Shown piece after piece: positions 13,213 to 40,250 of a DNA stretch of 64,000 nt. The notes beneath the pieces are model-generated. The model ran no database searches. It saw only the letters and a list, made by a program, of their open reading frames with translations, and had not been told where the DNA came from. The DNA comes from Selaginella tamariscina (Eukaryota > Streptophyta > Lycopodiopsida > Selaginellales > Selaginellaceae), in NCBI GenBank assembly GCA_003024785.1, contig PUQB01000469.1, forward strand, positions 134,547 to 198,546, given 5' to 3'. The translations under genes and the position numbers were made by a program. Position 1 is the first letter of the stretch. Each line of letters opens with the position of its first letter.

Positions 13213-13250
13213 GGAGTGTCGCCATTTTGGAGGCTTGGGGCCCAGGAGGC
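13213..13250 (+). repeat. Left terminal inverted repeat, Element 1
   Basis: It starts GGAGTGTCGCC and pairs imperfectly with the right end at 21983-22020, whose complement starts GGGTCTCGGCG. Confidence 0.75.
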
Positions 13251-13258
13251 CTGGGCTC

Positions 13259-13296
13259 GAATATTCAAGAATATTCTAGAATATTTTGGAATATTC
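13259..13296. promoter_or_regulatory. Subterminal GAATATTC array (heat-shock-element-like), left end of Element 1
   Basis: Eight trinucleotides alternate GAA and TTC with exactly 2-bp spacers. Seven are perfect and one reads TTT. This is the canonical arrangement bound by heat-shock factors (inverted nGAAn units). It could equally be a transposase-binding subterminal repeat. Confidence 0.6.
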
Positions 13297-13425
13297 TTTC
13301 TGGTCGGCAGTATTGGCCTCAGTCGGCAAAAAAAATTCTATTAAAACTGTTGTATTTCTATCTTTTTTTTTTATATTAGCTTAATTTATTACTCAATATA
13401 CATTAGCTAAAGTTTCTTCTTCATC

Positions 13426-16400
13426 TTAAGTAAAGCTGCAGTTCTCGAACCACCAGTTACGCTTGGACGTGGAGGTGTTTGAGTAGGTAATCTCTGGTCT
13501 AATGTTCTCTGCAAGCTTGTTTGTTGCCAACCTAGAGAGTTCGAAACTCTTCTCGGTTCCTATAATATTCCTTCCGAGCTCGACGGCAGCTAACAACGAT
13601 GATCCCGGTTCCGGAACCAATATCCCAGACTAGGTCGCCAGGTCTACTGAGACGCTCGATCAAAAGCTGCATGAGTCGAACACTCTTCGGTTGAATCATC
13701 ATCCTGCACAAACTTCCATTAGGATAAACAAGCAAAGTACTTCCTTACCAAGCCTCCTGAAAACGGTCGGCGGTGTCGACGAGGATCGTGTTCGTCAACG
13801 CCAGAGGGTTTGGCCTCTTCGACTTCTTCTCAGAGCTTTGCAGCACCAAGAGAACTAACAAGTTATCCTGCCACATAGACCAAGTTAAACTTGAACTTGA
13901 ATAGCTAGCTTACCTTAATTTTGTCACGGTATCCCCAGCCTCGTGCACGGTAGACGCTGTAAGTCCCTGCAACCTCCAAGTTGATTACTGCAGCCGCCTG
14001 AATCACCGCCGAAACAGAAGGAGAACTCGCGAAGACGACCATGAAACCACTCGCTGCCAAGTGCATTCCACTGAACTGCAAGGCCTCCTCAAACTTCACC
14101 GGATCTAGCTGCACAATGTCCTTGTTGATGCTAGCACCTCCATATACAAGCTCATTGGGCAAGTCGAGGATGATGAGGTTGAAGCCGTATTCACCTACCA
14201 CTTCCTGGAACACCGTTTGTGACTCAACCGTATGTAGTCTGTCAACCTGTTGTCGGAGCTTGGTGTACACCTCTGTCTGGGAAGCACCCGGCTCGAAGAA
14301 AGACCTGCTCATCTCCTCCATATCGCACACAGCTAGGTCGTAGGATCCACGGGATGCAGCCAGGGTCGGGATGAAGGTCATCAGGTCGTCCTTGATGTCC
14401 AAACTAGCTACAAGTGGCTGCACCTCATTGATTGTAAAGTCGAATGCCGGCGGAGGTGCTGTAGAAGAGCTTGGTCCCGCTCCCGATCCCTTTGCAGGTG
14501 TAGTTGTCTTCCGCACCGTCTTCTTCATCTTGCTCTTCTTGATAGCCTCTACTTCTCTGGCTCCCAAACAATCGCTGGTAGATCATTGCGTGCACGTCGA
14601 ATAGTGAGCTCTCCCAAGCTGGTGGCTGTTGCGACGGACAGTCGAGCCAGAATGGAACATGCTCCCGTTCGAACGGTGTTAGAGCTCCTCTGCTCTTCGA
14701 CCACATGTGAGGCTCGCTTGTATGATCTGTCCACAGCTTCATCATCTAGGGACGGTGCATTTGCTTCGCCAGTATGAACCTGTAACACAAAGTCAGACAG
14801 TAGCAATGCTGGATTGAAAGCTTACCTCCATATCATCCGACGCGCAGACCTCACGCTCCAGAAACTCATTCGGCTCCATCGAATAAGTGAACCGTATGCA
14901 GTCATGGAAGGGCTGAAAGACCAGGCACTTGCTCCGAGTTCTCATCTCGTCAAACCAGCTCATGAAGTCGACATCCGTTCCAACTTCTTCACCATCCTCT
15001 CGCAACCCCTTAAGGATCTGAATGGCTTCCTCGCGCACAGCCTTCCAATATAAGTCCAAGGTGAACCACTTGATCCACTCTTTGTCCTGCATGCCCGGTA
15101 GCCCAAGTGTCTGTTGTTCTGCCTTGGATTCGAGACGGGTGAGCTTGTTCAGTATCGGAGTCGCAGCATGTTTGGAATCTTCGCCTTGACATCGCATACA
15201 GCTTCTCAATGCCCATCCAGCGACACTGCTTATGAGAGATGTTCGTCACCTTCTGGAACCACTCCTCCCCCAAGTCTGGGTCTATGATGGAGAGGAACTT
15301 GTGCATACGCTTGTCATGCTTCTTGTACACTAGCTGCTTCAGGTTCACCTCAACCTGTGATTGCCCTTAGCACTGGTGACTGCTCTGTCGAGATCATCGT
15401 CGATCTCGTTCTGCACATAGAATAAGTTAAAAATTCTTTCCTATAAATTAAATCGGAGGTTACCTTGAAAAGGATCTTTGCGCAGATCAGGTTCGGAAGA
15501 GGATGCCAAGCCGTCTTTCCTGAACTCTCCTTCCACTTCCGCACCTCAAGACGATCAACCTCCGTGAGTGACTCGAGGATTTTCTGAGTTCCTTCTGTAC
15601 TAGTGCAGACCGCCTTTACAGCGAGGAGAATATGTGGTAGCGTTGTTTCCACAGATGTTGCTGAAGATCTGTTCAACGAAACTGTAAGTCTAAACTCTTA
15701 ACAAAAAGAAAAGAAAATACTCACATGTTAATCGATTGGAACATCGAAACCAGTTGAAGAATGTCGAGGTTCTCCGTGGAGATGAAACTCGATCGAACGC
15801 GAATAGCCCATCGCTGGTTGTCCTCTGCATCCTCTCGGTACTTCTGCAAAGCCTGTAGCCTATGGTTCCCGTCCCAGCAGCTAAACTTCCTGTTTGAGAG
15901 CCTTGAAGCCCACTGTTTGTACTCCGGCTGAGTAAGAGCTTGCTCGAAAGACCGGTGCTGCTCGTACTGAATCGTGTCCTTCGACAGCTCCGATAGCTCC
16001 TCAGCAGTGAGTCGATCTCCGATGGACAGAATGAACAAGGCCGTGTTGCGTAGATAACCAGCCTTCTTCAACGATGACACCAGCCTGTCCAAGTCCCCTG
16101 GGTTCACTCGTCGAACCACCTCGTTCGAATGTATTCTACAGATGGGCACATCAGGAGGATCACCAAGTCCCTTGATAGTAATTTTGTCGAGCAGGTTTGC
16201 TGAGCTCTCCAAATGCAGGCTCGCCGGTATGCTGTATAACTCCTTCGGCTCCTTATCGCTCTTCGCCTTCTTGCCTTTTGAATCAGCTTTCCCGCGGCCT
16301 CTCTTTTTGCTGACTGCCTCCTCCAAGTCGTCCTCAACTGCCTCTGTCATCTGCACTTGCTCGTTCAGGACTGCAACCTCAGCGGATGAAGGAGGCAACT

Positions 16401-16604
16401 GCGACGAGCTCTCCGGGAAATCTGTGATGTTGGTGGAGGCTCTTGCTCAACTGGTACTACTCCAGACTGAGTCACTGGAGGATCCTCCTTTGCTACATTA
16501 GATGGTTCTCCTCTCTTGCCTCGCTTCTGCTTCGATATCCTCTTCTCTTCCCGTGGCTCTTCATCAGGCGCAGTCTCTAGTAGACGTTTTGAAGCTCTCA
16601 CCAT
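13426..16604 (-). pseudogene. ParB-like/DNA methyltransferase-like cargo gene of Element 1
   Basis: Six exons are inferred from GT-AG sites and from alignment with the Element 2 gene: 15725-16604, 15464-15681, 14826-15410, 13914-14779, 13749-13867 and 13426-13703. Exon 1 starts MVRASKRLL with a basic/acidic linker, then a ParB/sulfiredoxin-like domain (VPICRIHSNEVVRRVNPGDL, later WDGNHRLQALQKY, the G.HR..A motif). Exon 4 holds the position of methyltransferase motif IV (LIILDLPNELVYG; canonical D/N/S-PPY is not kept). Exon 6 holds the AdoMet-binding motif I (DLVWDIGSGTG) near the C terminus. Motif IV before motif I is the beta-class order. Frame changes, for example near 16400-16430, around 15180 and around 13600, break the reading frame. 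It is transcribed away from the transposase gene. Confidence 0.65.
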
Positions 16605-16708
16605 TTTGTAAACTCTGGAAAGCAAACACACAAGTCAATTGATTAGGAGACAAAATAAAAAAACAAACAAAGATGACTAACCTTGTGGCTGCCGACTCAA
16701 GCTAGATG

Positions 16709-16731
16709 GTGCCGACCCTCTCAGTCGGCAC
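16709..16731. repeat. Type GCCGAC palindrome (first of nine)
   Basis: The perfect arms GTGCCGAC and GTCGGCAC flank CCTCTCA. The same hairpin recurs through the intergenic block. Single GTCGGC and GCCGAC half-sites also occur near both element ends (13304-13325 and 21870-21890). Confidence 0.7.
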
Positions 16732-17379
16732 AGAGATGTAGAAGAGCATTTCCTGCCGACTGAGACAGGTTAGTGCCGACCCTCTCAGACGGAGCTAGGA
16801 TCTCCTAAAATAAAAAATAAAAATAAAAAATGACTAACCTTGTGGCTGCCGACTCAAACTAGATGGTGCCGACCCTCTCAGTCGGCACAGAGATGTAAAA
16901 GAACAAGAATTGAACCCGCAACCTCTACGCTACAAGCTAATCACGTTCTTAAACTCTTCCTCTTCCTGGGAAAACGCAACCTCTACGCTACAAGCTAATC
17001 ACATTCTTAAACTCTTCCTCTTCCTGGGAAAACGCAACCTCTACGCTACAAGCTAATCACGTTCTTAAACTCTTCCTCTTCCTAGGAAAAAAAGTAAGTT
17101 AACAGGACTTGTGGCTGCCGACTCAAACTAGATGGTGCCGACCCTCTCAGTCGGCACAAAGATAAAAGAACAAGAATCAAACCCACAACCTCTACGCTAC
17201 AAACTACAAGAGCTAACCAACTTGTCAATTCTATAAACATGAGAGCATATTGGCATGTGCTGCATATTGACCTGGATTAGTGAAGTGTTAATCACATCCT
17301 TAACCTGCTCCTGCCTAATCCGTCCCTAACCCCGTGGCTGCCGACTCAAACTAGATGGTGCCGACCCTCTCAGTCGGCA

Positions 17380-18300
17380 CAAAGATGTAAAAGAATAGGA
17401 ATCGAACCCACAACCTCTACGCTACAAACTGCAAGATGTAAAAGAACAGGAATCGAACCCACAACCTCTACGCTACAAACTGCAAGATGTAAAAGAACAG
17501 GAATCGAACCCACAACCTCTACGCTACAAACTGCAAGATGTAAAAGAACAGGAATCGAACCCATAACCTCTACACTACAAATTGCAAGAGCTAACCAACT
17601 TGCCAATTCTATAAACATGAGAGCATATTGGCATGTGTTGCATATTGACCTGGATTAGTGAAGTGTTAATCATCACGTCCTTAACCTGCTCCTGCCTAAT
17701 TCGTCCCTAACCCCGTGGCTGCCGACTCAAACTAGATGGTGCCGACCCTATCAGTCGGCACAAAGATGTAAAAGAACAAGAATCGAACCTAACCCCGTGG
17801 CTGCCGACTCAAACTAGATGGTGCCGACCCTCTCAGTCGGCACAAAGATGTAAAGAACAAGAATCGAACCCACAACCTCTACGCTACAAACTGCAAGATG
17901 TAAAAGAACAAAGATGTAAAGAACAAGAATCGAACCACACCTCTACGCTAAAACTGCAAGATGTAAAAGAACAAGAATCGAACCCACAACCTCTACGCTA
18001 CAAACTGCAAGATGTAAAAGAACAGGACTTGAACACACACCTCTACAATACAACCACAAAAGCTAACCAACTTGTCAATTCTATAAACACACAACCTCTA
18101 CAATACAAACCACAAAAGCTAACCAACTTGTCAATTCTATAACACAAAGCATATTGGCATGTGGTGCATATTGACCTTGTCAATTCTATAAACACAAGAG
18201 CATATTGGCATGTGGTGCATATTGACCTGGCTTAGTGAAGTGTTTGTTAGCAAGAATCAAACCCGCAACCTCTATGTTACAAACCACAAGGGCTAACCAA
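17380..18300 (-). repeat. tRNA-derived SINE-like (pol III promoter-like) tandem units
   Basis: On the minus strand each unit reads through TAGCGTAGAGGTTG to GGGTTCGATTCC, which matches a tRNA B box (GGTTCGANNCC) after a tRNA-like body. Less degraded copies near 17154-17240 and 18241-18310 add an A-box-like TGGTTAGC about 35 bp upstream. The units are tandem, some spaced exactly 51 bp. No complete tRNA cloverleaf is present, so I do not call tRNA genes. Confidence 0.45.
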
Positions 18301-18989
18301 CTTGTTAATTCTATAAACACTTATAAACATTGGCATGCAGTATATATGTACTTTTTGTAGCTAAATCCTTAATTTATTATGGTAAGTTTAGTTAACGATT
18401 TAGGATTTAGTGTTAATCATTTTCATAAATATTCTTAATCAAGTGTTAATCACGTCCTATTTTTGCCATTCCAAAAAAGGATTGTTGAATCCTTTTTTGT
18501 CATTCCAAAAAGAATTTGTTAAGGTTATATAAGGATAACTAACTATAAGGGTGAAATATATGCCACTATTGCCAGTAACACATGCGATTGGTGTATCACA
18601 AAGGTTAGTTCATTTCTTTTCTTTCCATCATACAAAGTATAGAATTCATATTTGCCATTTTATTAAGTTAACATTATAACTCTGTAAAAAGAAATACTTG
18701 AGCCACAAAGCAAAAAATAAATAAATTCAAAATACCTTATGGTTGCCGATTGAACTAGGATGGTGCCGTCACTCTCAGTCGGCACAAATGGGAAGACACA
18801 TTAACTTTGAAAAAAAACATTGTTTACAGATACTTGAGCCGCAAAGCAAAAATAAACAAATTCAAAATACCTTGTGGCTGCCGACTGAACTAGGATGGTG
18901 CCATCACTCTCAGTCGGCACAAATGGAAGACCCTTTATCTATGGGATTCCGACACAAATGGGAAGACACATTAACTTTGAAAAAAAAAA

Positions 18990-21829
18990 ACATTGTGATA
19001 CGGATAATTGAGCCGCAAAGAAAAAAATTAAAGTTAAACGAGTCTCTGACCTACCGCAGATATACAATGGAAATGTCATTTATGAACTTCCCCAAAGAAA
19101 GAAAGCACAGAGAAGTACTTGGGATGAATCGCAAGGATGGCTGCTACCATTGGACACACCCGAGCACAACACACTGGCATGTTTCGGCACAAGTCAGTCG
19201 AAGTTCATGTGTCGGACATCTCAAATGCATCAATCCTACCTGCCCTACTTGGCTTTTGAGAAGAAAGCAAATGAATGTCACTTCAAGGGTGCTGTGGAGA
19301 AGGCAAAGACAACTGAGACAGGCAAAGTAATAGGCATGAAATGTAAGCATTGTGGAGAGGAGCCATGATTGCTAGTGCACACTTGTCCGGCTTATGTGTA
19401 CTACATTCTGCCAGACGACATTTCTTTTACAAGGTTGTTCATTCATAGAGGTGTTCATTAGCATCCAGTCAGCCCCTCAGTGTCAGCTTCAAACGTTCAG
19501 CATGCCAGATCTAGTGTCAGCAACGTGGTAAAGAACAGTCCGCAAACCAATCAACGAGTGGTTGAGTTTCAAGCTGCGCGTGAGCTCATCTTTGAAGAAC
19601 TTTTCAAGGAAGAAGAAAGTCTCGTACACTGGTTTACTCTCAAAACTTGAACCTCTAACAAACCATCGAAGGTATTTTTCTTTAGATCTCTACACACTGA
19701 CGTGACCTTTCCTTTAGGACTCGGGACTGGATTACACAATCAAGACAGAAGGAGACACACTTTAGAGAGGGTTACGAGGGTCTTCTGGAGCTGAAGACAA
19801 AGTTGCCAATACCTTTCATTCACGTCATACATGTTCCAGGGATGGAACTATGGTGCTGAGGAGAAGCCTCTGATCTTCAAAATGACAGTTGAGGGACCGG
19901 GTTCAGGAGTTGACTACATCAGAAGGTGTCAAAGTGGAGAGACCTTCATGATCAATGGGTGTTCTGGACCACACGCACCGTATACCAGACTGGGCGACAA
20001 TTGGAATACACCTTTATGATCCATTGTAAGTTGTAGAACTCTTCATAACACTTTCTAATCTTAGTTATCTAATGCTCTCTTACAGTGTCAGATCCATGGT
20101 GACTATAGCTTACGCAGATATGTGCCGCAAAGATAATGTTGCAGTGCTGAAGTTCTTGAACACAATGCTAGAGGTTTGTAAGAAGCAGGGTTTGGAGAAT
20201 GTCAACTTTGCTGGTTTCATGTCGGATGAGGCTGGAGCGATATGGATAGCCTTGCGCCAAGTATTCAACAACGGAGAAAAGATGAAAGGGAGGAAAGAAG
20301 CTGTCTGTTTCACTTTATGCAATCCGTGCGTCAGGTGACAAAGAAATGAATCGCAAAAGAACATCGCGAAGAACACATGAAACTTGCTCGTGCCTGGCCT
20401 GCAGCACTGAATGAACAATCTAAGAAAGAACAACTAGCAATTCTCGAGTCTTTTTGGGAAGGACGAGCGTCAAACATTCGAGCTTTGAAGACATGGCTGT
20501 CTTGGTGGATTAGGCATGAGGACCACATCTCCATGGCGAACTGAGAGACATGACAGAAGAAGGACTCGCGAGCGTTCCAACTACAAACAATGCTGAAGTG
20601 ATCCACACGAGAGCAAGAAGAGCAAGATTGGCCAAAAGAGTACCACTGCTGGAGGCGACAATGTTAGACCTCACCGATGCAGTTATGCAGAGTGCGAAGG
20701 TGAAAGCGGCAATAGAAGGGAGGTATACAGGGTCAGGTCCTTCGAAGGAAACTCTGTTGAAACGAGTGCAACGCAAACTCTCTGAGGGGAAAAGTGTATC
20801 TCCATCAACAATTATCAATCTAGTGGAAGGCGAGGAACACTTGACCAGCCCGGAGTTCACGAGTACCACTAACGTTCAGTGCAAACTGTTAGGAGAACAA
20901 TCACAGGAACAGAACAGTCTGATCGACGTTCACACAGACATGATGTAGAGTACACAGAGCGGGTGGTCCAAAAAACAGGAGAAAGAGGTTAAGGTTCGAA
21001 GAGGTTTTGGAGAGAGAGATTGCTCAAACAGAGTGGGCCATCAGATGAATCGGAGCATCCAGTAAGGTTAAGTGTTTGGGATGAATCAGGAAGGAACTGC
21101 TCTGTGTGGAAAACCAATCGGTTATCCAAGCAGAGTGCCAGCACCAGGATTCTATGGAAAACGAATGTACATTGATGCCTTGGGGAATGAGGAGTATGTA
21201 CAACAGATGATGTGGTTCTGCCCAAAAGATTCAGGGTGTTTCACGGCCAAACGGCAAAATTCTTCGGTCACGAATTCCAACACCACCAACGGTTTGGCCT
21301 GTGCTCAAGGAAACGAAGCTGACAAGTGAGGAGGTCAGAGAACTACAGGATGCAGGCTTTGTTCTGGAAGGTTTACAGGGGATGGCAAGAAGAGTAGATG
21401 AGGGTCAGAAGGACAAAACACCATCGCCACCACGTGGAGCTGGATCTACAACAATTCCACCTTTCGAAGGACGTATGGTCCGGACTCCAACAAAAATGTC
21501 TAAGGAACAAGAGAAGAATTTTCACAAGGCCAAGACGTTTTTAGGTCGTGTGAGAAATGTTGAAGTGACAGTTAAAGGACGGAAGGAGGCTTTCGTTGTG
21601 TCGGCAGGAAATGACTCTGCAAAGGTGACTGTTATACTTATCCTACATGCAGTTGTTCTACACCTTTCAGAAGAGCAAAAGTTGTACTTACTTCGTCTAT
21701 AGCCGTGTGCTTGGCTTGAACCCGGACGTCACATATTTTCTACAAAGGCAATCGCTCAGTGAGATGGAGGTCCACCGTTTGCTGATGAATTACAGCAGAG
21801 TTCATGACCCACCGGTGCTACAAGGATAA
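18990..21829 (+). pseudogene. MULE-like transposase gene of Element 1
   Basis: It is collinear with the better-preserved Element 2 transposase. Visible parts in order: a Cys/His-rich N-terminal domain (CVGHLKCINPTCP, then LPDDISFTRLFIHRG about 19400-19460), the region before and around the first catalytic Asp (PGSGVDYIRRC at 19896 and DHTHR-like sequence at 19966), an intron at about 20030-20085, then FAGFMSDEAGAIW at 20206 (second catalytic Asp region) and a C-terminal block ending HRLLMNYS near 21790 after the SWIM region. Several stops and frameshifts interrupt it. It is divergent to the cargo gene, with the repeat block between them. Confidence 0.7.
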
Positions 21830-21910
21830 ATGGTTTAGGGTTTAGGATAATGCTTTATTAAGCCAGTCGGCATATATTAAGCCAGTCGGCATATTAAAAA
21901 AACTTATCTA

Positions 21911-22146
<236 letters not shown>

Positions 22147-23340: not shown

Positions 23341-23554
23341 ATACGCGGACTTTCTTCCTTTGGCGATTCAATAACTCAATAGAAGCACGCCTTTCTTAAT
23401 ATGCAAGCAAAAACTTTTAAACATAATACATATATATGTATATATATATATTGTGTGTGTAAACCATCATGTAAATATCTACAGAAGTTTTTGGTTAATA
23501 ATTTTTCAAAAGCATTGTTCTTCATAAGTTGGTGCGATTAATCTGGACCCTGGC

Positions 23555-27290: not shown

Positions 27291-27379
27291 ATATTATTTA
27301 TGTATGTAGGCTTGGAATTGAGATATGCATGCATATGTAACAAAAATGTGTGTGTGCGCGTTTTAGTTCTTAAAAATGT

Positions 27380-28132: not shown

Positions 28133-28390
28133 TGGAGGGGGTTTAGGAATGAGAGGGTGGAAATCGGGGTGGATTGAGAGCGTACGATCTCGCGTAACAC
28201 GATCAAAGATCTTATTTCCGAGTTCGTAGGAGTATCCACGGCCAGGACAGCATGAGGAATAACAGAGAATGAAATCACTCGATAATAGATTTTAACACGT
28301 TCAGATTAACGTCATTAACGCTCACATAGAAGCACGCATGCACATTATTCAGTTTTATTGCAAACATGACATAAGACATCGAAAGTCTTT

Positions 28391-29626
28391 CTACTTCTTC
28401 CAAGAAGAGAGAGGAGGTGTAGATGCAAATCTCCAAGTGAAGGACATGTGAATGTCGTTGTATCTATTGCCATGGACAGCAGCAGAAGAAACAGCATTCT
28501 CAATCTCCTTGACCTCTTCCTGAGATAGACTAACATTGAGAGCACCAATGTTCTCCTCCAAGTTCTTCGCCTTAGTCGTGCCTGGGATGGGCACAATATC
28601 ATCGCCTTTGCTACGGAGCCATGCAAGTGCAAGCTGCCCAGCAGTACAATTCTTCTTTGTAGCTATCTCACACAACTTCTGGTATATCATCTTGTTTCGC
28701 TCCAGATTCTCACCTTGGAACCTTGGATTCACCTGCAATACTCATCATATACATGTGTGTGTGTTTGTGCGCGCGTGTGTACCTTACGGGAATCATTTTC
28801 TGCAAGCTCTTCCACAACAGCCTTTCCAGAGAAAAAGCCTCGCCCCAGAGGACTGTATGCAACTATTCCAATTCCTAGCTCCCTGCACAAAAGAATAAGT
28901 TACATATACAGTATATTGCATCAAATATACCTGCAAGTTGGAATGATGTCTTCTTCAACATCGCGAGACCAGAGAGAGTATTCAATTTGCACCGCTGTGA
29001 TGGGATGAACAGCATGAGCACGACGGATATCAGAAGAAGATGCCTCAGACAAACCGATGTACTTGACTTTGCCTTCCTCCACCAATTTTTTCATTTCCCC
29101 AACCTAGTTAAGATTTGTCTCTTTAATTACATCTCAATACACACACACACACACAACTTACGGTGATTTCAATTGGAACTTTAGTATCCACACGGTGCTG
29201 ATAATACAGATCAATGCAATCGACATCCAGTCGCTTCAAGCTTGCCTCACAAGCCGCACGAACATATTCAGGCTCTCCATGGATGCTCCAGTTTCCTTTC
29301 TCATCGAAGGAATTGGCAAACTTAGTTGCAAGTTGCACTTTCGCTCTGTACCCTTTGATTGCCTAAGAATACAAACGGTGTACTACACGCTCCGATGGCA
29401 TGCAAGATGTTAGACATACCTTTCCTAGTAAGATCTCATTTGTGTGAGGTCCATACACATCTGCTGTGTCCATGAAAGTGGTGCCTGATTCAATGGCCTT
29501 GCGAATGAGAGCAACCATTTCTTCTTCTGGCTTTGGAGGGCCATAGAAAGCAGACATGCCCATGCAGCCAAGTCCCTGCTTTGAGACATCAAGTCCCTGA
29601 GAACCGAGCTTCACAAGAGGCGCCAT
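28391..29626 (-). CDS. NADPH-dependent aldo-keto reductase, copy B (intact)
   Basis: Five exons with GT-AG introns are at 29420-29626, 29162-29362, 28931-29103, 28783-28882 and 28391-28732. They total 1023 bp and encode 340 aa, the usual length for plant AKR13/perakine-reductase-like enzymes, which reduce aldehydes or ketones with NADPH in the cytosol. The protein begins [20 protein letters not shown]. The catalytic tetrad is visible as Asp53 and Tyr58 (FMDTADVYG), Lys83 (LATKF) and His125 (LYYQH). GLSEASS and [13 protein letters not shown] are cofactor-site blocks. I chose the ATG at 29626 because homologues start there; an in-frame ATG at 29686 would add 20 residues. This is the only copy of four here with every exon in frame. 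The substrate is unknown. Confidence 0.92.
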
Positions 29627-29727
29627 AGCTGCAAAAGAGATAGGTCTTCCACTGTGACTAGTTGTCCTTTCATTGGCCGCCGTCATTTTTTGACTCCCAA
29701 GCCTAAGGGTTTATCATAAGATGGTTT

Positions 29728-30634
29728 GGCCGATTCACATTGCACATTAACTTGTGAATATTTAATGCAATTGTCTTTACACCGGTTAATATGTGAACAT
29801 TAACTAAATTTAATGTAATTGTTTTTACACCGGCCAAATTTAATGCAATTGTGTTTACACCGGTTAATATGTAAACATTAATTAAATTTAATGTAATTAT
29901 TTTTACATCGGCCTGAACATTAATTAAATTTTAAAAAGATAATGTAATATTGTTTATTAATGTTACACAAATTAAAAATTAAATTAAAAATAATGTTCAA
30001 CTTGTAAAATTTAGCATTAACTTAATGCTAAATTTTAATACCAAGGCCTTAGGGTTTACATTAGGGCATATAAATGACAAGAGCTCCAAACAAGTAATTA
30101 TGTGTGGGTTAAAATAAGAAATGGAGCCCTCACATTTAATTCTGTAGGTAAGGAAGTGTTACAAGTAGGAGATGTATAACTAAATTTTTTAAATATAATA
30201 ATAAATGAATTAGACAATAGTGATCTGGAAGGAGATCGTAATCGTCCATCTCATGACTTCTCTTCTTGAGACTTTTAAACAAGGCAAGGTAAAGTATAAT
30301 ATGGACTTGAATACTTTGTAATTGCAGTGTAAATAAAATACAAAATTTAATATTTTAATATAAAGTTAATATAAAATATTTATGAAAACACATATACGTT
30401 AATAATTCTAATGTAATAATACAGTGTGAAGTCATTTACATAACATTAAATTAAGTTAGGCTACATTAACTAAATGTTTTTTTAATGTTGTGATTAATTA
30501 ATGTTGTTGTCAAGATCAATAAAGTTAATTAATAATATTAAATTAATAATAGTTAATGTAATGTTCATAACTTAATGTGTAGTGTGAATCGGCGTTTTAA
30601 GTCAGAGAACTTAACGTTTGGTGTGAATCGGCCC
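29728..30634. mobile_element. Non-autonomous TIR element (MITE-like) upstream of AKR copy B
   Basis: The ends are perfect 12-bp inverted repeats GGCCGATTCACA (29728-29739 and 30622-30633). It interrupts the AKR upstream region that is continuous in copy A near 22750. The interior is AT-rich with tandem TTTACACCGGTTAAT units near 29775-29910. There are no ORFs and no convincing target duplication. Confidence 0.55.
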
Positions 30635-30649
30635 ATAAGTCAGAGGTAC

Positions 30650-31220
30650 TTCATCCACGTAAACCACTGAAGAATATTTGGTAGGTGTATAAAAATTATA
30701 GAAAGAGGGTTGTTTTTCTTTGGATATATAATATACGTGAGAGGTACTGTTTTATATACCTCTCACGTATATATACGCAAGTCGCTTATATGTTTTTATA
30801 AAGATATCCCACCATCTCTAGGGTTCCGATCTTATACCTCCAGCATCATAGACAAGAAAGACGCACAACCTATACGTACATAGATACGCACACAGACACG
30901 TATGTTAGTATAAATGTGTACATACAACAAACGAGTGTTCACCCATTATGTGTAGTCAAGCACATACGTCGTGTATACATGTATATCCGTAGGTTGCACA
31001 AACAAACCGGTTTTCTTGAACAAAACTCGGAAAGAGCAAGAACAATGCTCAACTCTCCCTCCACATTCTCTCCACTTGTGCAGATGTAAAACAAACCTCT
31101 AGAGAGCAGGCAAAATTCGAGTATAACTTCAACAGCATTTGCACGCACACGCACACACACACATGCATTTACTTTGGAAGCTATCATATATATAGACTTT
31201 CTTCTAGTGTAGAATATTAA
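30650..31220 (-). promoter_or_regulatory. Conserved upstream block of AKR copy B
   Basis: This is the same block as 22800-23340. The hairpin has 16-bp arms at 30731-30746 and 30757-30772 around a 10-nt loop. It was displaced from the gene by the insertion at 29728-30634. Confidence 0.5.
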
Positions 31221-31444
31221 TATTATATATGAAAAATGCAGATTCAAATTATTGTTAGGAGCACTAAGTGAGTTACCACGTGACCTCTTCACTTGGATAA
31301 ACAAGTTCCCAAGTAGTTCTAGCCTTCCCAAACGCAACGCCTCTAAGGAAGCAAGAACATGTGGCTTCTATGGAGGAGCTTATCAAGATTTGCCAAAGTT
31401 ACTGTACTACTGGCTACTCAGGAGAGAGATATTAAGAGATATCA

Positions 31445-31452
31445 CTAAATAT
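31445..31452. repeat. Target-site duplication, left, Element 2
   Basis: CTAAATAT is repeated at 40251-40258. Confidence 0.8.
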
Positions 31453-31502
31453 CGGGGCACGGCGAAATTCGAGCGCAGGTCAACAGCTTGACCTAGATTT
31501 CT

Positions 31503-31639
31503 GAATATTCTTGAATATTCGTTGTTCCGTACGATTTCCGTCTAAATATCCTCGAATATTCTGTACAGAAATTTTTCGTACTGCCAAGTGTACACACAAT
31601 TGGACTTTCCAAAATTTTCAAGAATATTCTAGAATATTC
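31503..31639. promoter_or_regulatory. Subterminal GAATATTC arrays, left end of Element 2
   Basis: Four perfect alternating GAA/TTC units lie at 31503-31520 and five at 31617-31639, all with 2-bp spacers. Another GAATATTC is near 31554. They lie at the 3' side of the transposase gene. Confidence 0.6.
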
Positions 31640-31739
31640 TAGTGCGGCGGTCGCATACAAAATATGGTAGTATATTTTGTTGTATTTAAAGAAAATATAT
31701 GTTAAATTACTTAAAAATATGCTAAGCATAAAATTACCA

Positions 31740-34700
31740 TTAAAATTTATATTGAAAATTATAAGTTTGAAATAATAAATATAAAACCGAAGCTGTTTGA
31801 AAACAAACCAAACACACTAAATAAATGTGGAGGATGAGGTTCCTTGGTAGCATCAATAAAGAACTTAGTTCACGGGGTGCAAGTGTACGACGTTGCAAAT
31901 GCTTGACAACTCGAGGATCAGCTCCCAGTACACGCTTGTAAACAAAATACATATGTTTGCAAGGCACCCACTGACGACCATTGCAGAACTCCGAGCATGA
32001 ACAAGATGGTGCGCTACAAATGACAACCCAAGCAGATGTATGGTCGTTGTCACATACTCTGAAGCGAATGCATGTTGGAGGATCAACCACGTCAACTTCT
32101 GCGACATATGCTCCCAACGTCAAACATGCTTCAAAACTTACCTGTTGTTTCTTAGACATCCCTAAAGGTGTTCTTGTTGCACGACCACTTGCAGGAACAG
32201 GAGGTCCACGAAATTGTGCAGGGGGTGTTGAAAATCCAGTGACTCCAACAGGAACTGAAGGAACATGAGGTGTTGAAAAACCTGGCACTCCTGCATGAGC
32301 TGAAGGAAGCCCAGCTAGCATAAAACCTGATCTTGCCAGATCATTGATCTCCATTGCTATCAGCTTCGTGCCCACTTGAACTTTCCAAACCGAGGTAGAA
32401 GCTGGCGGAGAAACAATAGTTGGTCTTGGATGTCTGTTGCAAAGCATGTTTGTTGGACAAAAATACATCATTTGTGAGCGAAAGCATTCTTCACCAGTTT
32501 CTTTGTCATTGTATCTGATCCTTCCAAAAAAACAAGGAGCAGCCACTCGATTACCACTAGGACTGATCTTTTTGTCACAAGCACTCCACTGACCTCCTGA
32601 AGAGGGAAAGCCTGCCAGACATTTCACAGAACTTCTTTCACCACATCTTCTAATCGCCCATTGTCCAGGTGTAACATCTTGTTCTTCAACCAGAACATAT
32701 TCTTCATGTTCTTCTGCAAGTTGAAAATCCAATCGTCGCTTCCGTCTACACTGTGTTGGAATAACCTGTTCACTATAGAAGATGTCCGGTCGGTGGGATC
32801 GTTCAGCCTCTGACCCCATATTTCTTTGCACAGTGCGATGTTCAACATTCGTGGCAGCCACAAAAGCAGTATCCTGCATGCTTGATGGAGCAACATCTTC
32901 AACTAAGTCGATGATAACCTTTGCTGTAGGTGTTGTTGAGTTAGCATTTGACATTCTTCTCTCGAACCTTGCTGAGAGCTCCTCTGAAGTCGGCCCGGAA
33001 CCACTATACCTTCCATCTCTAAAAGCCTTCACAAGAGCACATTGTCGCACTGATTCAGTCAGGTCGTGGATTGTAGCTTGGTACAATGAAATGTATTTTG
33101 AATCTCTAGCCCTCCTCCATCTTCCGTGAACAGACTCCGACTGGTTTGTCATGGGCACAACCCTTGCAGCATTCTCCGGCATGCTTTCAAGAACAACATT
33201 TGAAATATGATTCTTCTGTCTTTCCCACCATGAAAACCACGTCTGCATAACTCCAACATCCTTCACATTTTCATTCCAAAAGCGGAAAAGATTATTTTCA
33301 ATTTCTTCACGATCAGTTGTTGATGTGGCTGTTGGCCATGATCTCAAAAGTTGAAGATGTTGTTGTTGATGTTCAAGAGGGACCCACTTCCTTGTCACAC
33401 GTTGTATGGCTTGTTCATAGTGAAAGATACAGCTCCGTTCACGTCCAGGAATTTCTTGGCCATTAAAGAACACATTCCTAATTGCTTGCCAGATCGCTCC
33501 TGCTTCATCGGACATAAACCCAGCGAACTGCACATTGTAGATTCCCTTCTCGGAACAGACATCCAACATAGCACGAAAAAACTTCTCCACAGCTCCAGCC
33601 GTTTGTCTCTTCATGTCACCATAAGCAATGGTGGATAATCGGCGCACACTATAAAATAATCAAAGAGTTAAGCAAACAACAAAAAGATAACATCTTACTT
33701 TGGGTCGTAAACATGCAATGCCAGAGTGATCCACTTATCAACAACACGGTGTGTGTGATCAAGTAGAACCCAACTCTTCTGCAAAGGGCCAAGAGGAGGT
33801 TGGCACATCCTTACATAATCGATTCCAGAACCTGGCCCTGAAACCGTCATCTTAAAAACTAATGCCTGGTCGTCTGAACCACGGAAATTCATCCCAGGAT
33901 AGTGAATCACGTGGATGAATGGGATAGACAACCTTCGTTTCAGCTCCAATAATCCATCAATATTCTCTGGCATTTCAGCAGCAGTTCTCTTTGCGGACGC
34001 TACCCATTGACGAACTCTGCATCAAAGGTATTATCAAAGAATGCTCAGCACAAAGTAAAACTCTAATTGTACCTTCGATTGTTTGATAATGGTTGCAAAT
34101 GATCCATGAGCTTATCCCAACTTCCAGGCTCAGAATTATCTAATAGAAACCAAAGATAGCATCTTTACATGCTGCCATTTCGATGACTCTTGGACTAGCT
34201 CTGGGAGTTCTTTCTGTTGCATTCTGGACCGCCATATGCATTTCTTCTTTGTTCGATGCAGAAACACCATCACCCACTGGATGTGAATGTTTTCCCTGGT
34301 GGATAAACAATCTAGTCTTGGTTATGTCGTCTGGGAAAACGCAAAACGCCACAGCATGACAAACTTCAAGGCACAATGGATTTTCTTTACAGAAAAAACA
34401 TGTCAATCCTTTTGCCAGTTTGTCGATTGAAGGTGGGGAAACAATACATCCTTTCCATTTAGTGCAGTTCGGAAATCCTGCCTTAGAAGCAGGGCAGTCC
34501 GGGTTGATACAGCAAAGGCTCCCAACACATTTGCTCCTGGACACCCTCGCTTGAAAATTCCAGTTGCTGGTCGTTCTGCTGTCCAGGTATGTCCATCCTC
34601 TTTCCGATTCATTCCTTTGTATTTGTATTCGGAAGGAGGGAGCTCAAAAATGACATCCCCATCATACGCAATAGGCAATTCATTTGTATGAATGATCGTG

Positions 34701-35032
34701 GAACCCTCGATAAGAATTCTTCCCTTTTTGCAGGTATTAGAAGTGAAAAGGTTCTTCAACGTTGAGTATTCAGAGTCAGAAGCAACGACAAGCTTAAACA
34801 ATGGTCCTTCATCCGGTAACAAAACATATCCTGGATTATCCTTCCCTCCAGCATCTTGGTCCTCGTTTATTTCGATCTCTAAAGCAGATTGCCCATGAAG
34901 AAGTTTAAAAAGACGAACACTTTGCCAATCAAAAATGCCAAAGAACGTTCTAATCTGATTAGTAAGAATGATTCCAACACCATCTATCACAGGAACATCG
35001 TGATCCAAATTGCCGTAAACAATCCTGGCCAT
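31740..35032 (-). CDS. MULE-like transposase gene of Element 2 (nearly complete)
   Basis: The gene reads 35032 to 31740 on the minus strand, in three main exons: about 34080-35032 (starting MARIVYGNLD), 33699-34016 and 31740-33648. The N-terminal part has a Cys/His domain (CVGSLCCINPDCP ... CFFCKENPLCLE ... IHQGKHSHP) like the GCM1/WRKY-type zinc fingers associated with MULEs. The core has LLDHTHRVV (probable first Asp) and FAGFMSDEAGAIWQAI (second Asp), followed by CIFHYEQAI (the C..H block after the second Asp). Near the C terminus is a SWIM zinc finger (CSCSEFC ... CKH). The last exon is one open frame of 635 codons. Two frameshifts are suspected in the first exon, near 34548 and 34142, so the copy may be inactive. 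The predicted role is to cut and join the element ends. Confidence 0.75.
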
Positions 35033-35599
35033 TTTGCAAGCAGTTACCACAAACGTGACAGAAAAACAACAGCATTACTTAATCATCTTTTGGTAAATAT
35101 CGGATATTACCATTTCAAAAATTCACAATCATGACTCAACGTGGGCGAATATTTAATTCAAGGAAACGTATAGATCTTAGATGCTAATATAGTATAGCAC
35201 TTCACGTAGAGATAGAGCAATCTTTATTGTCTTTTAAATAAATGTGTGTCTAATCTACATTCATCTGACATATTTATTTATGACTTGTTTATATTCTGTT
35301 AATTTATTATTATAATTATATAGTTATTTGATCCAGTATTTTATCAAATGTAGACATTAATAATACATATTTTTACACGAATATTTATTTAATTATATAA
35401 TAATATATTTTTTTAACATACAAATTTTTACTTAAATATGTGTTTGTATTTGTATCCTTTTATATAGTATGTTATTTATCGTAAGTATTATATACTGTTG
35501 TATGGTTTAATTAAACACAGTTTTATAGTTAAGGGTCAAAGGGTTAAGTGTTAGATTTTAGGGTAAAGGTTCAGGACTACCCATTCTTCTTCTCCATTC

Positions 35600-36337
35600 T
35601 CCATTGTTGAGAGAGGGCACTTTTGTTCTTTTTTTTGCGGCGACAAGAGGCTAGTGTGAGCGTCACGGCGACATGGCTACAGGTAAAATCTTATATATGT
35701 GTATAGTAATTTCTGTGAATGTATGTGCAAATTCAGTAGGATTTCTTTGTATTCACAAACGCACGCGCGTGTGCACACACACACACACCTCCGACGCATG
35801 AGTTATTGCCGATTTCGGCAAACACACACACACACACACACACATTTCCTGCCAATTCGGGCAGGAAATCCGTGTGTGTGTGTGTGTGTTTTTGCGCACA
35901 CACATAAATAACATTTTACACAATATTTAAAAAGACTTGTTATATATATATATAATATTTTATCTAATAAAACTTTATATATATATATATATATATATTA
36001 TATTATATGTATGTATATGAATTAAGACTTGTATATATGAGATGATGCTTTTTGTCTGTATATACATTGTGAAGAGATATGAATATACCCATATTCTCTC
36101 TCACAGACACATCACAAAACACAAACAACATTGCACACACACACACATAATCAACATTACACACATACACAAGGAACATTATATAGTGAGCACACACACA
36201 AACAACATTACACGTATAAATATGTGTGTGTGTGCGTGTGTGTCTATATATATTGATAGGTATACATATATAGTAAATGTGTGTCCATAAATTAAAACAA
36301 CTCACACACACACACTTATCAGTTGTTGTAATTGCAG
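35600..36337. promoter_or_regulatory. Intergenic region between the Element 2 genes
   Basis: It lies between divergent genes. It holds (CA)n/(TG)n tracts and two palindromes: TTGCCGATTTCGGCAA at 35806-35821, and ATTTCCTGCC with GGCAGGAAAT at 35844-35869. The second sits between (CA)n and (TG)n, so that 35822-35889 could fold into one long hairpin. A possible non-coding first exon ends at 35681 (donor ACAG/GTAAAA). Confidence 0.5.
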
Positions 36338-36338
36338 A

Positions 36339-39300
36339 ATGAGACAAAGGCAGAGTAAGAGACTACGAGATAAATACAAGACTTTGACACTTCAAGAACA
36401 TATCGTCCAAGAAGCTCTTGCAGATATGGCTCCAAAACCTCGTGGCAAGAAAGGAGGCCGAGGCGCCAAGCAACAACTGCAACACAAGAGATGATGCCGA
36501 CGAACAATGAACCTGTGGATAGTTCGCAAGTCATTGATGAACATACTGTGGTGAGTGAATGGATGCCTAGAAATAGGGAGATTGCAGGAAGCTCTGCAGA
36601 ACACGGTAATGCAGAGGAAGTACCGGATATTGATCTTGGTAGTAAAATGTTCAATAAGAAGAGGAAACTGGATGCTCCTGAGGATGTTGCCGAATCATAT
36701 GCAATTCCGGAGCGGCTGACACTTGAGGCTCCATCCAAGCTTCTTCGGGATCTTGTTATTCGGTATGACACGATATTGACACATCGCTACAAGGACGAGA
36801 CCACTACGTTCCAGTTGAGCTTGGTGAGCCTCCGCGTATCCCGGTTCACAGGTTGCTCCCACACCAACGTTTGAGGAATGTCACTAAGGACGGCGTGAAA
36901 GACCTTGTTGGATGGATTAGAGCTGAAGGATTTTACCAGGAGACGTCAGTGTTCACCTTATCTTTCGGACCACAGCTGAGTGCAGACGAACGCCGAAGTT
37001 GGAATGAGTCAGAAGCACAGGTCGATAGAGAGTTTGAAGCGGATTTGCATAAGCCAGCATTTTCTGCATGGTATCGATTTCTGAAAGATGCAAAGTTTCT
37101 GGTGTGGGATGGGAATCATCGTCGGGTTGCTTTGAACACTTTGCTTGCTGAAGAGCCAGGTTTGAAATGGACTTTGCGTGTACGTGCAACACTCATAGCA
37201 TCCACAGTGCAAGAGGAGAAGAGACTAATCGCTGCTTGCAATCGGTTGAATGAGTAAGTGACTTGTTTGTTTCATTATTTAAATACTAAATAAATGTTGT
37301 TTTGTTTTGCAGAGCAACTGCTCGTGTGGTTCCTACAACAATCATTCACACCTTGCAGTTCTTACGGAATTGTTGTGTGAAGTCTGCAGATCTTTCTACC
37401 GATCATGTTCTTCGCGGGATGCCGGAGGAAGATAGAAAAGCTGTGGAAGTGTGGAGATCGAACAGAAAAGAAGACGTTTGGTACGAGTATCCAAAGACGA
37501 CATTGGTGAAGATTTTTTGGGAGGTAATCTTTTCTTCTTCTTTTGACTGTTTTTTGATTTTCGGTTTCTTTTGCAGAATCAACTGAAGCGACAAATCGCT
37601 ACAAAACTTGCGAACAGAAAACCAAACCAGACAGAATCTCAGATCCTCTCCAGCGTTTACAAGACATTCACAGTTCGGATGAACAAATTCCTCACCATTG
37701 CTGATCCGGCGGTCGGTGAAGATTGGTTCAAGGCGATCACAGATATCACTATCAAACCATCAACGAAGCAAATAACTCTGGAGAAGCTTCAAATGCTCGC
37801 GAAGTCCCAGCTTCCTTCCAACGTCAAGGTTGATATCCTTGGAAAGCTTGTGCACATTCAAGAACGTGGCGTTCTTGAGAAGCTGGTGAACATGACGGAG
37901 AAAGACAAGAAGGAAGGTGTCACCGGCTGGCCTGACAAGGACTTCATCAAGTTTTTGCACATCTTTACTTACTGGTTCCAGGTAATTTAATATTTATATT
38001 TTTCATTTTTATTCGTTTTATCGTGCCAGGTCGCGGGAGCTAAAGAGCTTTTCGGCATGAGCAGTTAGTGAGAGTTTATGGCATGGTATAGAAGATGCAC
38101 AATGAAATTAAGTTGGATATGTACCAGAACATGCTCGAGAACAAGGAGTTCGGTGCGACAATTCCACCTCCTCGACTATTTGAGCTGGAAAAATCTGCAA
38201 AAAGAATGGCATTCAGGCAAGTTTTTTTTTGTTTCTTTACAGATTTTTATCTATTTTTACAGGTTTTTAAAATGGAAAAACGATGCACTCCCTGAAGATT
38301 TCAAAGAGTGGATGGATGTTACCAAGGATTCTAGCATGTGGAGCCGGTTGTTACGTGATATCAGTGATTACGAAGTGGAACACTGTCCTTTCTGGCTGGA
38401 TTTCCTTCCTGGTGACTGTCCCGAATGGGAGATGGCCAGCTATAAGATACACAAGGATGATCGGCGAGAGCTATTATGGAAGAACGACAATGCTGCAAGG
38501 AAGCTCCATGTGAAGATGGATATCAGGTATGCTAGATCGGCGAGCAAGGTCAGCAAGGGACAAGCTTCTTCTTCAGCCCCATCCTTCATCTCGGCTGGAT
38601 TGGAAGAAGATGATATGTTGAGGATGGTGATGCCTGAGAAGGGAAATGGAAGCTGGGAAATCATTCATGCAGATTCAGAGAACCTTGCAGTCCAGTACTT
38701 CAAAGCCGGAAGGCCTTTTCCGTCAGGATTGAAGGAGCTTGAGGATTGGATCGTGAGTCACAAGTCAAGTTGGACTATTCATGTGTTTGGTGCGAAGCCT
38801 CCACCAAAATGCATCCAGGGAGCTGTTGATCTCGTTGTCATCGACCCGCCTACCGGATGCGTTGCTGAGGCAGGCGGGATGGTGGATCAATACACGAAGT
38901 TCTCGGATGCTTTGCTGAAGAACTTGGTGAACCTTGCTTTCGGGATATTAGACAGAGCTGGCCATGTGGTGTGTTTGTGCTACCGGATGATGTTCTAGCT
39001 TTGAAGAACACTGCAGAAACTTGCAAGCTAAAGTTTCTGCAGATGAGTTATGTGCACACGACAAAGTCATGGGGATACCGTTTCTCTAGAAAGGTAATTC
39101 TTCTTTTTGAGAATGTCATTTTTAATGTTTATTTTTTCAGGAAAGCATCATTGCCATGTGTATTTTTGGTTCCCCCTACTCTAAGGTTGCCAAGAACAAG
39201 GAGATCTTGGACACTCGCTACACTCTTCTTTTTGATGAGCCAGAAGATTTCCAGCTCCCATGGTATAATGTTGTTTGTTATTTCTCATGTTTAATATTGT

Positions 39301-39958
39301 AACTTTCAGGATTTCAATTGGCCCGAAATCTCCCAAGTTGTTTGCGATGCTAGTGGAGAAGCTCACAAAGCCTGGTGGAACTGTTGTGGATCTAACAGTG
39401 GGAACCGGTGCTAGTATTCTTGCAGCTTTTCACACAGGGAGACATGGTTATGGAATCGACATCAACAAGGATCTGGTTTTAGCAGCCAGAGATGTCTTCA
39501 GGAAGGTCATTCCAAGTGTTACAGCAGCTGAAGGTGGTGGGGATGATCAAGTTGTTTCCATGATTACTCCTTTTGATGAGTGGAAGAGGGCCATGGAAAC
39601 AGAAGCACAGGATTTGCCTTTGGCTAGCGACAACGATGGAGACCAGGATCCGCCTTCTCGAAACGACAAGGATGTTGTTACAGAAGTCCGTGGAGCACAA
39701 CGACGAGTCATCAGATGAGTCAGCAGAAGAGAGATCATACGAGTCATCAGATGATGAGTGAGATTTGTTTTTCATTTCTTTGGTTTTAAACTTTAATATG
39801 TTTTCAGTATTGTTCTACCAGACTACGCTAATCAGATGGCAAAGAAAATGGTTGAAGAGTTCGAAGTTTACGACAGACAGATTTTGGAAAATTCACGACA
39901 CCGTAACAATGCATTCATTAACGACGAGGCACTGGCTGGTGGAAACGAGTCTTCATGA
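36339..39958 (+). pseudogene. ParB-like/DNA methyltransferase-like cargo gene of Element 2
   Basis: Exons inferred from splice signals and from the Element 1 gene are 36339-37253, 37313-37523, 37577-37981, 38030-38220, 38263-39093, 39141-39262, 39310-39757 and 39808-39958. In order: basic N-terminal linker; ParB/sulfiredoxin-like domain (PPRIPVHRLLPHQRLRNV, then VWDGNHRRVAL); an alpha-helical middle; motif IV position LVVIDPPTG (DPPT, lacking the usual aromatic residue); AdoMet motif I (VVDLTVGTGASILAA, then HGYGIDIN, motif II) near the C terminus; an acidic tail (ESSDESAEE). Motif IV before motif I is the beta-class order (N6-adenine or N4-cytosine type). About five frameshifts are suspected, near 36480, 36813, 38090, 38968 and 39690. 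Start and first exon are uncertain. Confidence 0.65.
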
Positions 39959-40148
39959 TTGAGTTATGTTTATTGTAATTTTTTTTAGTTTGATGCGGTA
40001 TTTATATAAAAATATAATTATAGTTATAAATATAAATTTAAAAAAATAAATAAATATAAATATAAAATATATATATATGTCAGATTAACCCCCAAATTTG
40101 TGAAACTTTGACACATTACCGTGCCGCCAATTGCCCGCCCGCCGCACC

Positions 40149-40196
40149 GAATATTCTTTATATGAAAACGAATATTCTGTACGGAATGGAATATTC
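40149..40196. promoter_or_regulatory. Subterminal GAATATTC array, right end of Element 2
   Basis: GAATATTC occurs at 40149-40156 and 40170-40177, and GAATGGAATATTC at 40184-40196. Confidence 0.55.
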
Positions 40197-40250
40197 CGGT
40201 ATGACGGAAATCCGTACGCTCGGCAACTGCGCTCGAGGAAATGTCACACC

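What the first reader, a model, noticed from the sequence alone, without database searches (positions are those of the whole stretch)
13213..40250. A MULE lineage that carries a ParB-domain/DNA-methyltransferase cargo gene
Two elements of 8808 and 8798 bp, with TIRs and 8-bp target duplications, each hold the same two divergent genes: a MULE-like transposase, and a protein joining a ParB/sulfiredoxin-like domain to a beta-class DNA methyltransferase-like domain. Protein divergence between the elements is large, so the association is not one accident copied twice. I infer that the cargo is kept because it helps the element, for example by marking its own DNA or altering host silencing. I know of no described plant MULE with this pairing, but cannot search.
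Basis: partly seen in the sequence, partly recalled or inferred. Interest (0 to 1): 0.92.

Follow-up and report, generated by a model that had tools for sequence, protein, structure and literature searches.

The report
Jumping genes carrying methyltransferase-like companion gene
Two very common families of jumping genes in a plant genome, probably a spikemoss, each carry, beside the gene that moves them, the same ancient companion gene for a DNA-methyltransferase-like protein, which suggests that transposons of land plants, like some in algae, may equip themselves to bind or mark their own DNA.

Summary
Both elements are real insertions: target duplications are 9 bp, not 8, and three uninterrupted paralogous stretches show element 1's empty target. 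Each holds a transposase gene and, divergently, one gene with a DGxHR (ParB/DndB-like) region followed by a beta-class N6/N4 methyltransferase fold (Pfam 2.4e-9, 5.3e-8). All four genes are broken in the window, but the host genome (300.7 Mb, probably Selaginella tamariscina) holds dozens of near-identical copies of each family; 2 of 20 and 3 of 4 fetched copies have an unbroken cargo gene (992 and 1042 aa). The cargo lies divergently beside 60 of 69 family 2 transposase loci. Between families it keeps 29% identity and five introns at identical positions and phases although synonymous sites are saturated: it has been maintained by selection. Cautions: the catalytic motif is DPPT or DLPN, without the aromatic residue of active enzymes, so methylation is unproven; and the transposase is MULE-like by duplication length and catalytic spacing but unrecognised by MULE profiles. 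The pairing is reported for algal transposons of another superfamily; the land-plant, MULE-like, high-copy form was not found in my searches. Function is inferred: self-targeting through terminal GAATATTC arrays.

The parts
13214..22020 (.). Element 1 (family 1), 8807 bp, inserted in one copy of a repeated host stretch that holds aldo/keto reductase ORFs
   Evidence: 9-bp duplication; three uninterrupted paralogous stretches; Pfam Aldo_ket_red in 2 of 3 ORFs of the repeated stretch that I scanned
13205..13213 (.). Left target duplication of element 1, TTCAATTTG (right copy 22021-22029)
13408..16605 (-). Cargo gene of element 1 (broken here): DGxHR (ParB/DndB-like) region, middle region, beta-class methyltransferase fold; 5 introns
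   Evidence: unbroken 992-aa product in family copies L023 and L024
15724..16239 (-). DGxHR (ParB/DndB-like) region of the element 1 cargo, WDGNHR
14154..14165 (-). Motif IV of the element 1 methyltransferase-like domain, read DLPN
   Evidence: same in unbroken copy L023
18980..21830 (+). Transposase gene of element 1, broken by many frame changes (start approximate)
   Evidence: frame-by-frame blastp to element 2
16650..18920 (.). Intergenic tandem arrays with paired AGTCGGCA motifs and a repeated unit of about 51 bp
   Evidence: 19 of 19 AGTCGGCA in the window lie in element 1, 16 of them in this stretch, 3 near the ends
13259..13296 (.). Left subterminal GAATATTC array of element 1 (right sites 21911-21930)
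31454..40250 (.). Element 2 (family 2), 8797 bp
   Evidence: 9-bp duplication
31445..31453 (.). Left target duplication of element 2, CTAAATATC (right copy 40251-40259)
31740..35032 (-). Transposase gene of element 2 (broken here upstream of the last exon): zinc-finger region, D-D-CxxH-E core, SWIM-type finger
   Evidence: three open exons in family copy L033
36339..39763 (+). Cargo gene of element 2 (broken here); 6 introns, the fourth with a GC donor
   Evidence: unbroken 1042-aa product in family copies L033, L034, L036
36769..37254 (+). Open frame with the DGxHR (ParB/DndB-like) region of the element 2 cargo, WDGNHR
38843..38854 (+). Motif IV of the element 2 methyltransferase-like domain, read DPPT
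39383..39409 (+). Motif I (AdoMet-binding) region, VVDLTVGTG, downstream of motif IV: beta-class order
31503..31639 (.). Left subterminal GAATATTC array of element 2, 5 sites (right sites 40149-40196, 3 sites)

Best explanation
These are two deeply diverged, recently amplified families of one MULE-like DNA transposon lineage whose autonomous copies carry two divergent genes: a DDE transposase, and an accessory gene for a DGxHR (ParB/DndB-like) region joined to a beta-class amino-methyltransferase fold. SHOWN: mobility (9-bp duplications, empty sites), both genes in nearly every copy looked at, unbroken cargo genes in both families and a family 2 copy (L033) with both genes open, common ancestry of the cargo (same intron positions and phases), long maintenance by selection. 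INFERRED: the accessory protein is a self-targeting factor. The DGxHR region and the middle region recognise iterated sites of the element itself (the GAATATTC palindromes within 250 bp of both ends in both families, and in family 1 also the AGTCGGCA arrays), and the methyltransferase fold either modifies DNA there or, with its altered DPPT/DLPN motif, only binds AdoMet and DNA; the result is to shield the ends from host silencing or to regulate transposition. My confidence is about 0.93 for the anatomy and maintained association and about 0.4 for self-targeting as the function; the figure given is for the whole statement.
For: Mobility: 10 of 14 family 1 copies with both ends readable have an exact 9-bp duplication (8 without any shift of the ends; one more has one mismatch; 3 have none), and 3 of 4 in family 2. 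Both genes: 20 of 20 and 4 of 4 fetched loci; 60 of 69 family 2 transposase loci have a divergent cargo exon 2.65-4.28 kb away. Unbroken cargo: 992 aa in 2 of 20 family 1 loci, 1042 aa, identical, in 3 of 4 family 2 loci; three open transposase exons in L033. Methyltransferase: Pfam N6_N4_Mtase 37.9 and 33.5 bits, cut-off 26.7; PDB profile hits led by MboIIA at 1e-4, with RsrI, CcrM, DpnA at 0.02-0.03; motif IV before motif I. Selection: between the unbroken products 933 codons, 29% identity, pS 0.754, pN 0.515, 35 of 109 fourfold sites equal; introns at columns 323, 395, 602, 898, 938 with phases 2, 0, 2, 0, 2 in both families. Self-sites: all 60 GAATATTC in 14 family 1 copies and all 32 in 4 family 2 copies lie within 250 bp of an end; AGTCGGCA is confined to element 1 in the window, 19 of 19. 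Works-like precedent: VANC21 of Arabidopsis VANDAL elements binds YAGTATTAY in tandem repeats of its own element (PMC5735166, passages).
Against: Motif IV lacks the aromatic residue, also in unbroken copies; in a rotifer enzyme SPPY to APPA abolished activity (PMC8885841, passages). No binding of the cargo protein to any site was tested; GAATATTC may be a transposase site or a heat-shock-type element (nGAAnnTTCn, recalled). AGTCGGCA arrays are not shared by family 2 (0-1 per copy). Within old, dead copies the cargo exon evolves near-neutrally (pooled pN/pS 0.79 over 19 loci). 18 of 20 sampled family 1 loci do not give an unbroken cargo under the splice model; 9 of 69 transposase loci have no cargo exon within 8 kb.
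Confidence: 0.5

Rival explanations
1. The cargo is a transposition cofactor, not a silencing or marking factor: a second DNA-binding subunit that assembles the ends through the subterminal palindromes, with a methyltransferase fold that has lost catalysis.
For: Altered motif IV in both families; subterminal GAATATTC arrays in both families, where a transpososome would assemble; conserved co-occurrence with the transposase.
Against: The AdoMet motif is well kept (DIGSGTGSSLL in L023), which a pure DNA-bridging protein would not need; many DDE transposons manage with the transposase alone (established knowledge).
Confidence: 0.3
2. The cargo methylates the element's own DNA (4mC or 6mA at or near the palindromes) in spite of the unusual motif IV, and the mark, not mere binding, blocks silencing or times transposition.
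For: Beta-class fold over the Pfam cut-off; DPP kept in family 2; palindromic 8-bp sites suit a symmetric mark; the same proposal is printed for an Ectocarpus Sola1 transposon (PMC12477816, passages).
Against: The fourth residue of motif IV is T or N, not Y, F or W; family 1 lacks the second of the two prolines' usual pair (DLPN).
Confidence: 0.15
3. A passenger: a gene captured once, without benefit to the element, as in Pack-MULEs.
For: Old copies show near-neutral decay; many copies are broken.
Against: Kept with 29% identity, five shared introns and unbroken frames across saturated synonymous divergence, and present in nearly every copy looked at.
Confidence: 0.03

Closest known systems
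ParB + N4/N6 methyltransferase accessory protein of algal transposons (Sola1-1_Ec32 of Ectocarpus; [quoted passage not shown]
   Same: Same domain pairing in one protein (1104 aa there; 992 and 1042 aa here), on the strand opposite to the transposase, inside a DNA transposon (PMC12477816, passages read)
   Different: There Sola1, 21.5 kb, in a brown alga; here 9-bp duplications, 8.8 kb, a MULE-like transposase, a plant host, two high-copy families. The protein sequences could not be compared here; of the papers it cites, Petroll 2025 is not held and Iyer 2011 was not looked up
VANC of Arabidopsis VANDAL elements (non-TIR MULEs)
   Same: Accessory gene beside a transposase; [quoted passage not shown]
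   Different: VANC has DUF1985 and DUF287 domains and no methyltransferase fold named there; its motifs and effects are measured, ours are not
Bdelloid N4CMT and Marchantia 4mC methyltransferase
   Same: Amino-methyltransferase of bacterial type in a eukaryote (PMC8885841, passages)
   Different: Recruited as host enzymes, N4CMT with the SPPY motif; ours is carried by transposons and has DPPT or DLPN
Beta-class bacterial methyltransferases MboIIA, RsrI, CcrM, DpnA
   Same: Fold and motif order
   Different: Catalytic motif DPPY-type in those (recalled), altered here; none of these has a ParB-like region as far as I recall

Membership tests
MULE (Mutator-like element) | Target duplication of about 9 bp | tested here: met
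   Both window elements, and exact in 13 of 18 copies with both ends readable (10 of 14 and 3 of 4)
MULE (Mutator-like element) | D-D-CxxH-E layout with spacing like a Pfam-recognised MULE | tested here: met
   Motif starts at 404/470/499/593 in L033's product and 228/291/314/401 in a Pfam-MULE of the same genome, L056; motifs chosen by eye
MULE (Mutator-like element) | Match to Pfam MULE (PF10551) or profile similarity to a classical MULE | tested here: not met
   No match at E up to 10; none of 77 PF10551 places in the genome lies within 4 kb of any of 133 transposase places; hhalign probability 0.5 of 100 against L056, with a single sequence on that side
MULE (Mutator-like element) | Terminal inverted repeats | tested here: inconclusive
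   Short, imperfect; above shuffle means but within the shuffle range
Beta-class amino-methyltransferase (N6_N4_Mtase) | Fold match over the curated cut-off, motif IV before motif I | tested here: met
Beta-class amino-methyltransferase (N6_N4_Mtase) | Catalytic (D/N/S)PP(Y/F/W) | tested here: not met
   DPPT (family 2) and DLPN (family 1, also unbroken copies)
ParB/Srx superfamily | DGxHR box in a region of matching profile | tested here: inconclusive
   WDGNHR invariant; only DndB, below cut-off, for one of two members; no PDB sequence hit; models of pLDDT 49 and 47 gave no fold match at E up to 0.001
VANC-type anti-silencing factor | Binding to own motifs and loss of methylation of own family | not testable with these tools
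   Only the motif arrays are seen

The most novel reading that the evidence does not exclude
A land-plant transposon lineage has kept, over a time that saturated synonymous sites, a self-addressed ParB/methyltransferase-type protein that reads palindromes at the element's own ends; in one family it has become a catalytically dead 'reader', so that the element uses a bacterial-type modification enzyme as a sequence-specific shield against its host.
Probability: 0.3. Interest if true: 0.85.

Novelty: new variant of a known kind. Interest (0 to 1): 0.62.

Why it matters
It extends transposon-borne ParB/methyltransferase proteins from algae to what is probably a lycophyte and to a MULE-like lineage, with dozens of near-identical young copies, so the open question whether such accessory genes mark or protect their own transposon becomes directly testable: native long reads over copies with and without the gene, and DNA binding to two defined motifs. 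It also adds a contrast to VANC: another plant element with an accessory gene and self-repeats, built from unrelated domains.

Tried and rejected
Cargo relatives elsewhere: none with the family 2 protein in the 5.8-billion protein set (7998 candidates scored, E up to 0.01) or with both proteins (7996 candidates, E up to 1); none in viral contigs (133 pattern matches, none confirmed) or in one-per-species genomes of bacteria and archaea (58 pattern matches, none confirmed). How many plants the protein set holds I do not know; the other two are not plant collections, so this says little about plants. One transposase relative was found, P0001 (36% identity over 49%, no Pfam domain); its contig was not read, and a scan of viral contigs with it found nothing.

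An apparent 941-aa intronless cargo proved to be a gap of N in the assembly (L034). My first splice model of family 2 had a wrong fourth donor and made the cargo look broken; with a GC donor it is open in 3 of 4 loci, L035 being broken. Structure prediction of the ParB-like region failed. ARAGORN (13200-22030) and Rfam (whole window) found nothing, though the 51-bp unit reminded me of a tRNA-derived sequence. Heat-shock-element reading of the GAATATTC arrays: the spacing fits nGAAnnTTCn (recalled), but the arrays lie beyond the 3' ends of both genes, so a promoter role for these genes is less likely; not excluded. Old copies of the cargo exon gave no clear selection signal. Whether other transposase subfamilies (C443, C562, C213, C502, C498) carry the cargo is unknown.

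Literature; in these listings I found no report of this pairing in a land plant or a MULE; they cover open-licence papers only, and only passages of nine papers were read.
Full report
WHAT WAS CHECKED. The two elements are real. Element 1 is 13214-22020 (8807 bp) between two copies of TTCAATTTG, element 2 is 31454-40250 (8797 bp) between two copies of CTAAATATC. Element 1 sits in one copy of a repeated host stretch; 2 of 3 ORFs of that stretch that I scanned match Pfam Aldo_ket_red. The joined flanks of element 1 match three other copies of the stretch in the window without interruption (97%, 93%, 91%), and the 9-mer occurs there once. For element 2 one paralogous stretch runs 48 bases past the junction at 81%, which is weaker. 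The terminal inverted repeats are short and imperfect and would not stand alone.

HOST. The genome held for the window has 300,702,823 bases in 1391 contigs. I take the host to be S. tamariscina; no tool named it.

THE CARGO GENE. In both elements it is transcribed divergently from the transposase, from the middle outwards. The protein has an N-terminal region with an invariant WDGNHR (the DGxHR box of ParB, DndB and relatives, label recalled), a long middle region without matches, and a C-terminal beta-class amino-methyltransferase fold: Pfam N6_N4_Mtase E 2.4e-9 (element 1) and 5.3e-8 (element 2), both over the cut-off; PDB profile hits led by MboIIA at 1e-4; phage methyltransferase families in PHROGs, the best matched by both. 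Motif IV precedes motif I. The ParB-like label is weaker: DndB only, under its cut-off and for element 2 alone, and structure models were poor.

BROKEN HERE, UNBROKEN ELSEWHERE. In the window all four genes have frame changes or stops. Against the own genome, the cargo exon of element 1 gave 151 matches, most of those listed at 96-100% identity; that of element 2 gave 151, of which by my count 66 at 97-100% over at least 149 of 162 residues. Both lists are cut off by the tool. I fetched 20 loci of family 1 and 4 of family 2. With the five introns of element 1 removed, 2 of 20 family 1 loci (L023, L024) give one open protein of 992 aa, differing by one residue; 18 do not. With six introns removed, the fourth with a GC donor, 3 of 4 family 2 loci (L033, L034, L036) give one identical open protein of 1042 aa; L035 does not. 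L033 also has three open transposase exons. Among 11 of 19 compared cargo rows with 0-4 substitutions from the majority in about 3 kb, short indels number 0-7 each, which fits assembly error as well as decay; the copy in the window is older (27 substitutions, 13 short indels). Two of the 21 rows, L020 and L031, were left out of that count.

MOBILITY. Of 20 family 1 loci, 14 have both ends readable: 10 exact 9-bp duplications (8 at the predicted ends, 2 after shifts of 1-2 bases), 1 with one mismatch, 3 with none; 6 could not be judged. Of 4 family 2 loci, 3 exact within shifts of up to 3 bases, 1 not. An exact 9-mer among the 49 shifts tried is expected by chance in about 1 in 5000 copies of even composition.

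ASSOCIATION. All 20 family 1 and all 4 family 2 loci hold segments of both genes; these loci were chosen by their cargo exon. Taking the transposase first, 69 loci of the family 2 exon were scored and 60 have a cargo exon on the opposite strand 2.65-4.28 kb away; 9 do not within 8 kb.

MAINTENANCE. Between the unbroken products of L023 and L033 (933 aligned codons) identity is 29% (269), synonymous sites are saturated (pS 0.754), fourfold sites agree in 35 of 109, and pN is 0.515 (an earlier run on 634 codons with L035 gave 30%, 0.755, 22 of 71 and 0.504). The five introns of family 1 each have a counterpart at the same alignment column and phase in family 2 (columns 323, 395, 602, 898, 938; phases 2, 0, 2, 0, 2); family 2 has one more. 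So the gene was in the common ancestor of both families and was kept by selection. Against this, 19 old copies of the family 2 exon decay almost neutrally (pooled pN/pS 0.79), as dead insertions should.

CATALYSIS. Motif IV is DPPT in family 2 and DLPN in family 1, including the unbroken copies. Active amino-methyltransferases carry an aromatic residue there, and SPPY to APPA abolished activity in the rotifer enzyme (PMC8885841, passages). The AdoMet motif is well kept. I therefore do not call it an active methylase.

CIS SITES. GAATATTC occurs 16 times in the window, 13 of them in the two elements, all near the ends. In 14 family 1 and 4 family 2 copies with both ends, 60 of 60 and 32 of 32 occurrences are within 250 bp of an end; the copies are related, so these are not independent events, but the two families are saturated at synonymous sites and still share the motif and its place. 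AGTCGGCA is found 19 times in the window, all in element 1, 16 in its intergenic stretch and 3 near the ends; family 1 copies have 9-22, family 2 copies 0-1. Family-specific motifs amplified in tandem repeats of non-coding DNA are what VANC proteins of Arabidopsis VANDAL elements recognise (PMC5735166, passages). This is a resemblance in layout only.

IS IT A MULE? For: 9-bp duplications, catalytic residues spaced as in a Pfam-recognised MULE of the same genome, a SWIM-type finger and a WRKY/GCM-like zinc region (read by eye, names recalled). Against: no Pfam MULE match, no Pfam MULE place in the genome within 4 kb of 133 transposase places, no profile similarity. I call it MULE-like.

WHAT IS KNOWN. 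[quoted passage not shown] The papers it cites for this were not read. A 2026 review of gene capture by plant transposons has no occurrence of methyltransferase or ParB (PMC13317346, term search). So the kind is known; the variant in a land plant, in a MULE-like lineage, in two high-copy young families with altered catalytic motifs, is not in what I could search.

VERDICT. Real, well supported, a new variant of a known kind. Function is the open part.

Noticed in passing
window 12150-13213/22021-23281, 27891-31178, 58090-60095 and 61975-63833: Direct and inverted copies of a stretch with aldo/keto reductase ORFs (Pfam in 2 of 3 ORFs scanned), about 84-95% identical in the longer matches; element 1 interrupts one of them.
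   Followed up: partly
window 16900-18230: Tandem units of about 51-58 bp that contain GAATCGAACCC-like stretches, reminiscent of a tRNA-derived short element; ARAGORN and Rfam found nothing.
   Followed up: partly
window 13259-13296, 31503-31639: GAATATTCTAGAATATTC has the spacing of a heat-shock element (recalled); heat induction of these transposons was not tested.
   Followed up: no
L056-L059 (G000 C102, C158, C169, C291): A separate classical Pfam-MULE family with 16 domain matches of the same score in the same genome.
   Followed up: no
G000 C443, C562, C213, C502, C498 (coordinates): Further transposase subfamilies of the same lineage; whether they carry the cargo is unknown.
   Followed up: no
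window 38217-38262: The fourth intron of the family 2 cargo has a GC donor where family 1 has GT at the same position and phase.
   Followed up: yes
L013-L032: Several near-identical young copies differ more by 1-2 base indels than by substitutions, which points to indel errors in the assembly.
   Followed up: partly
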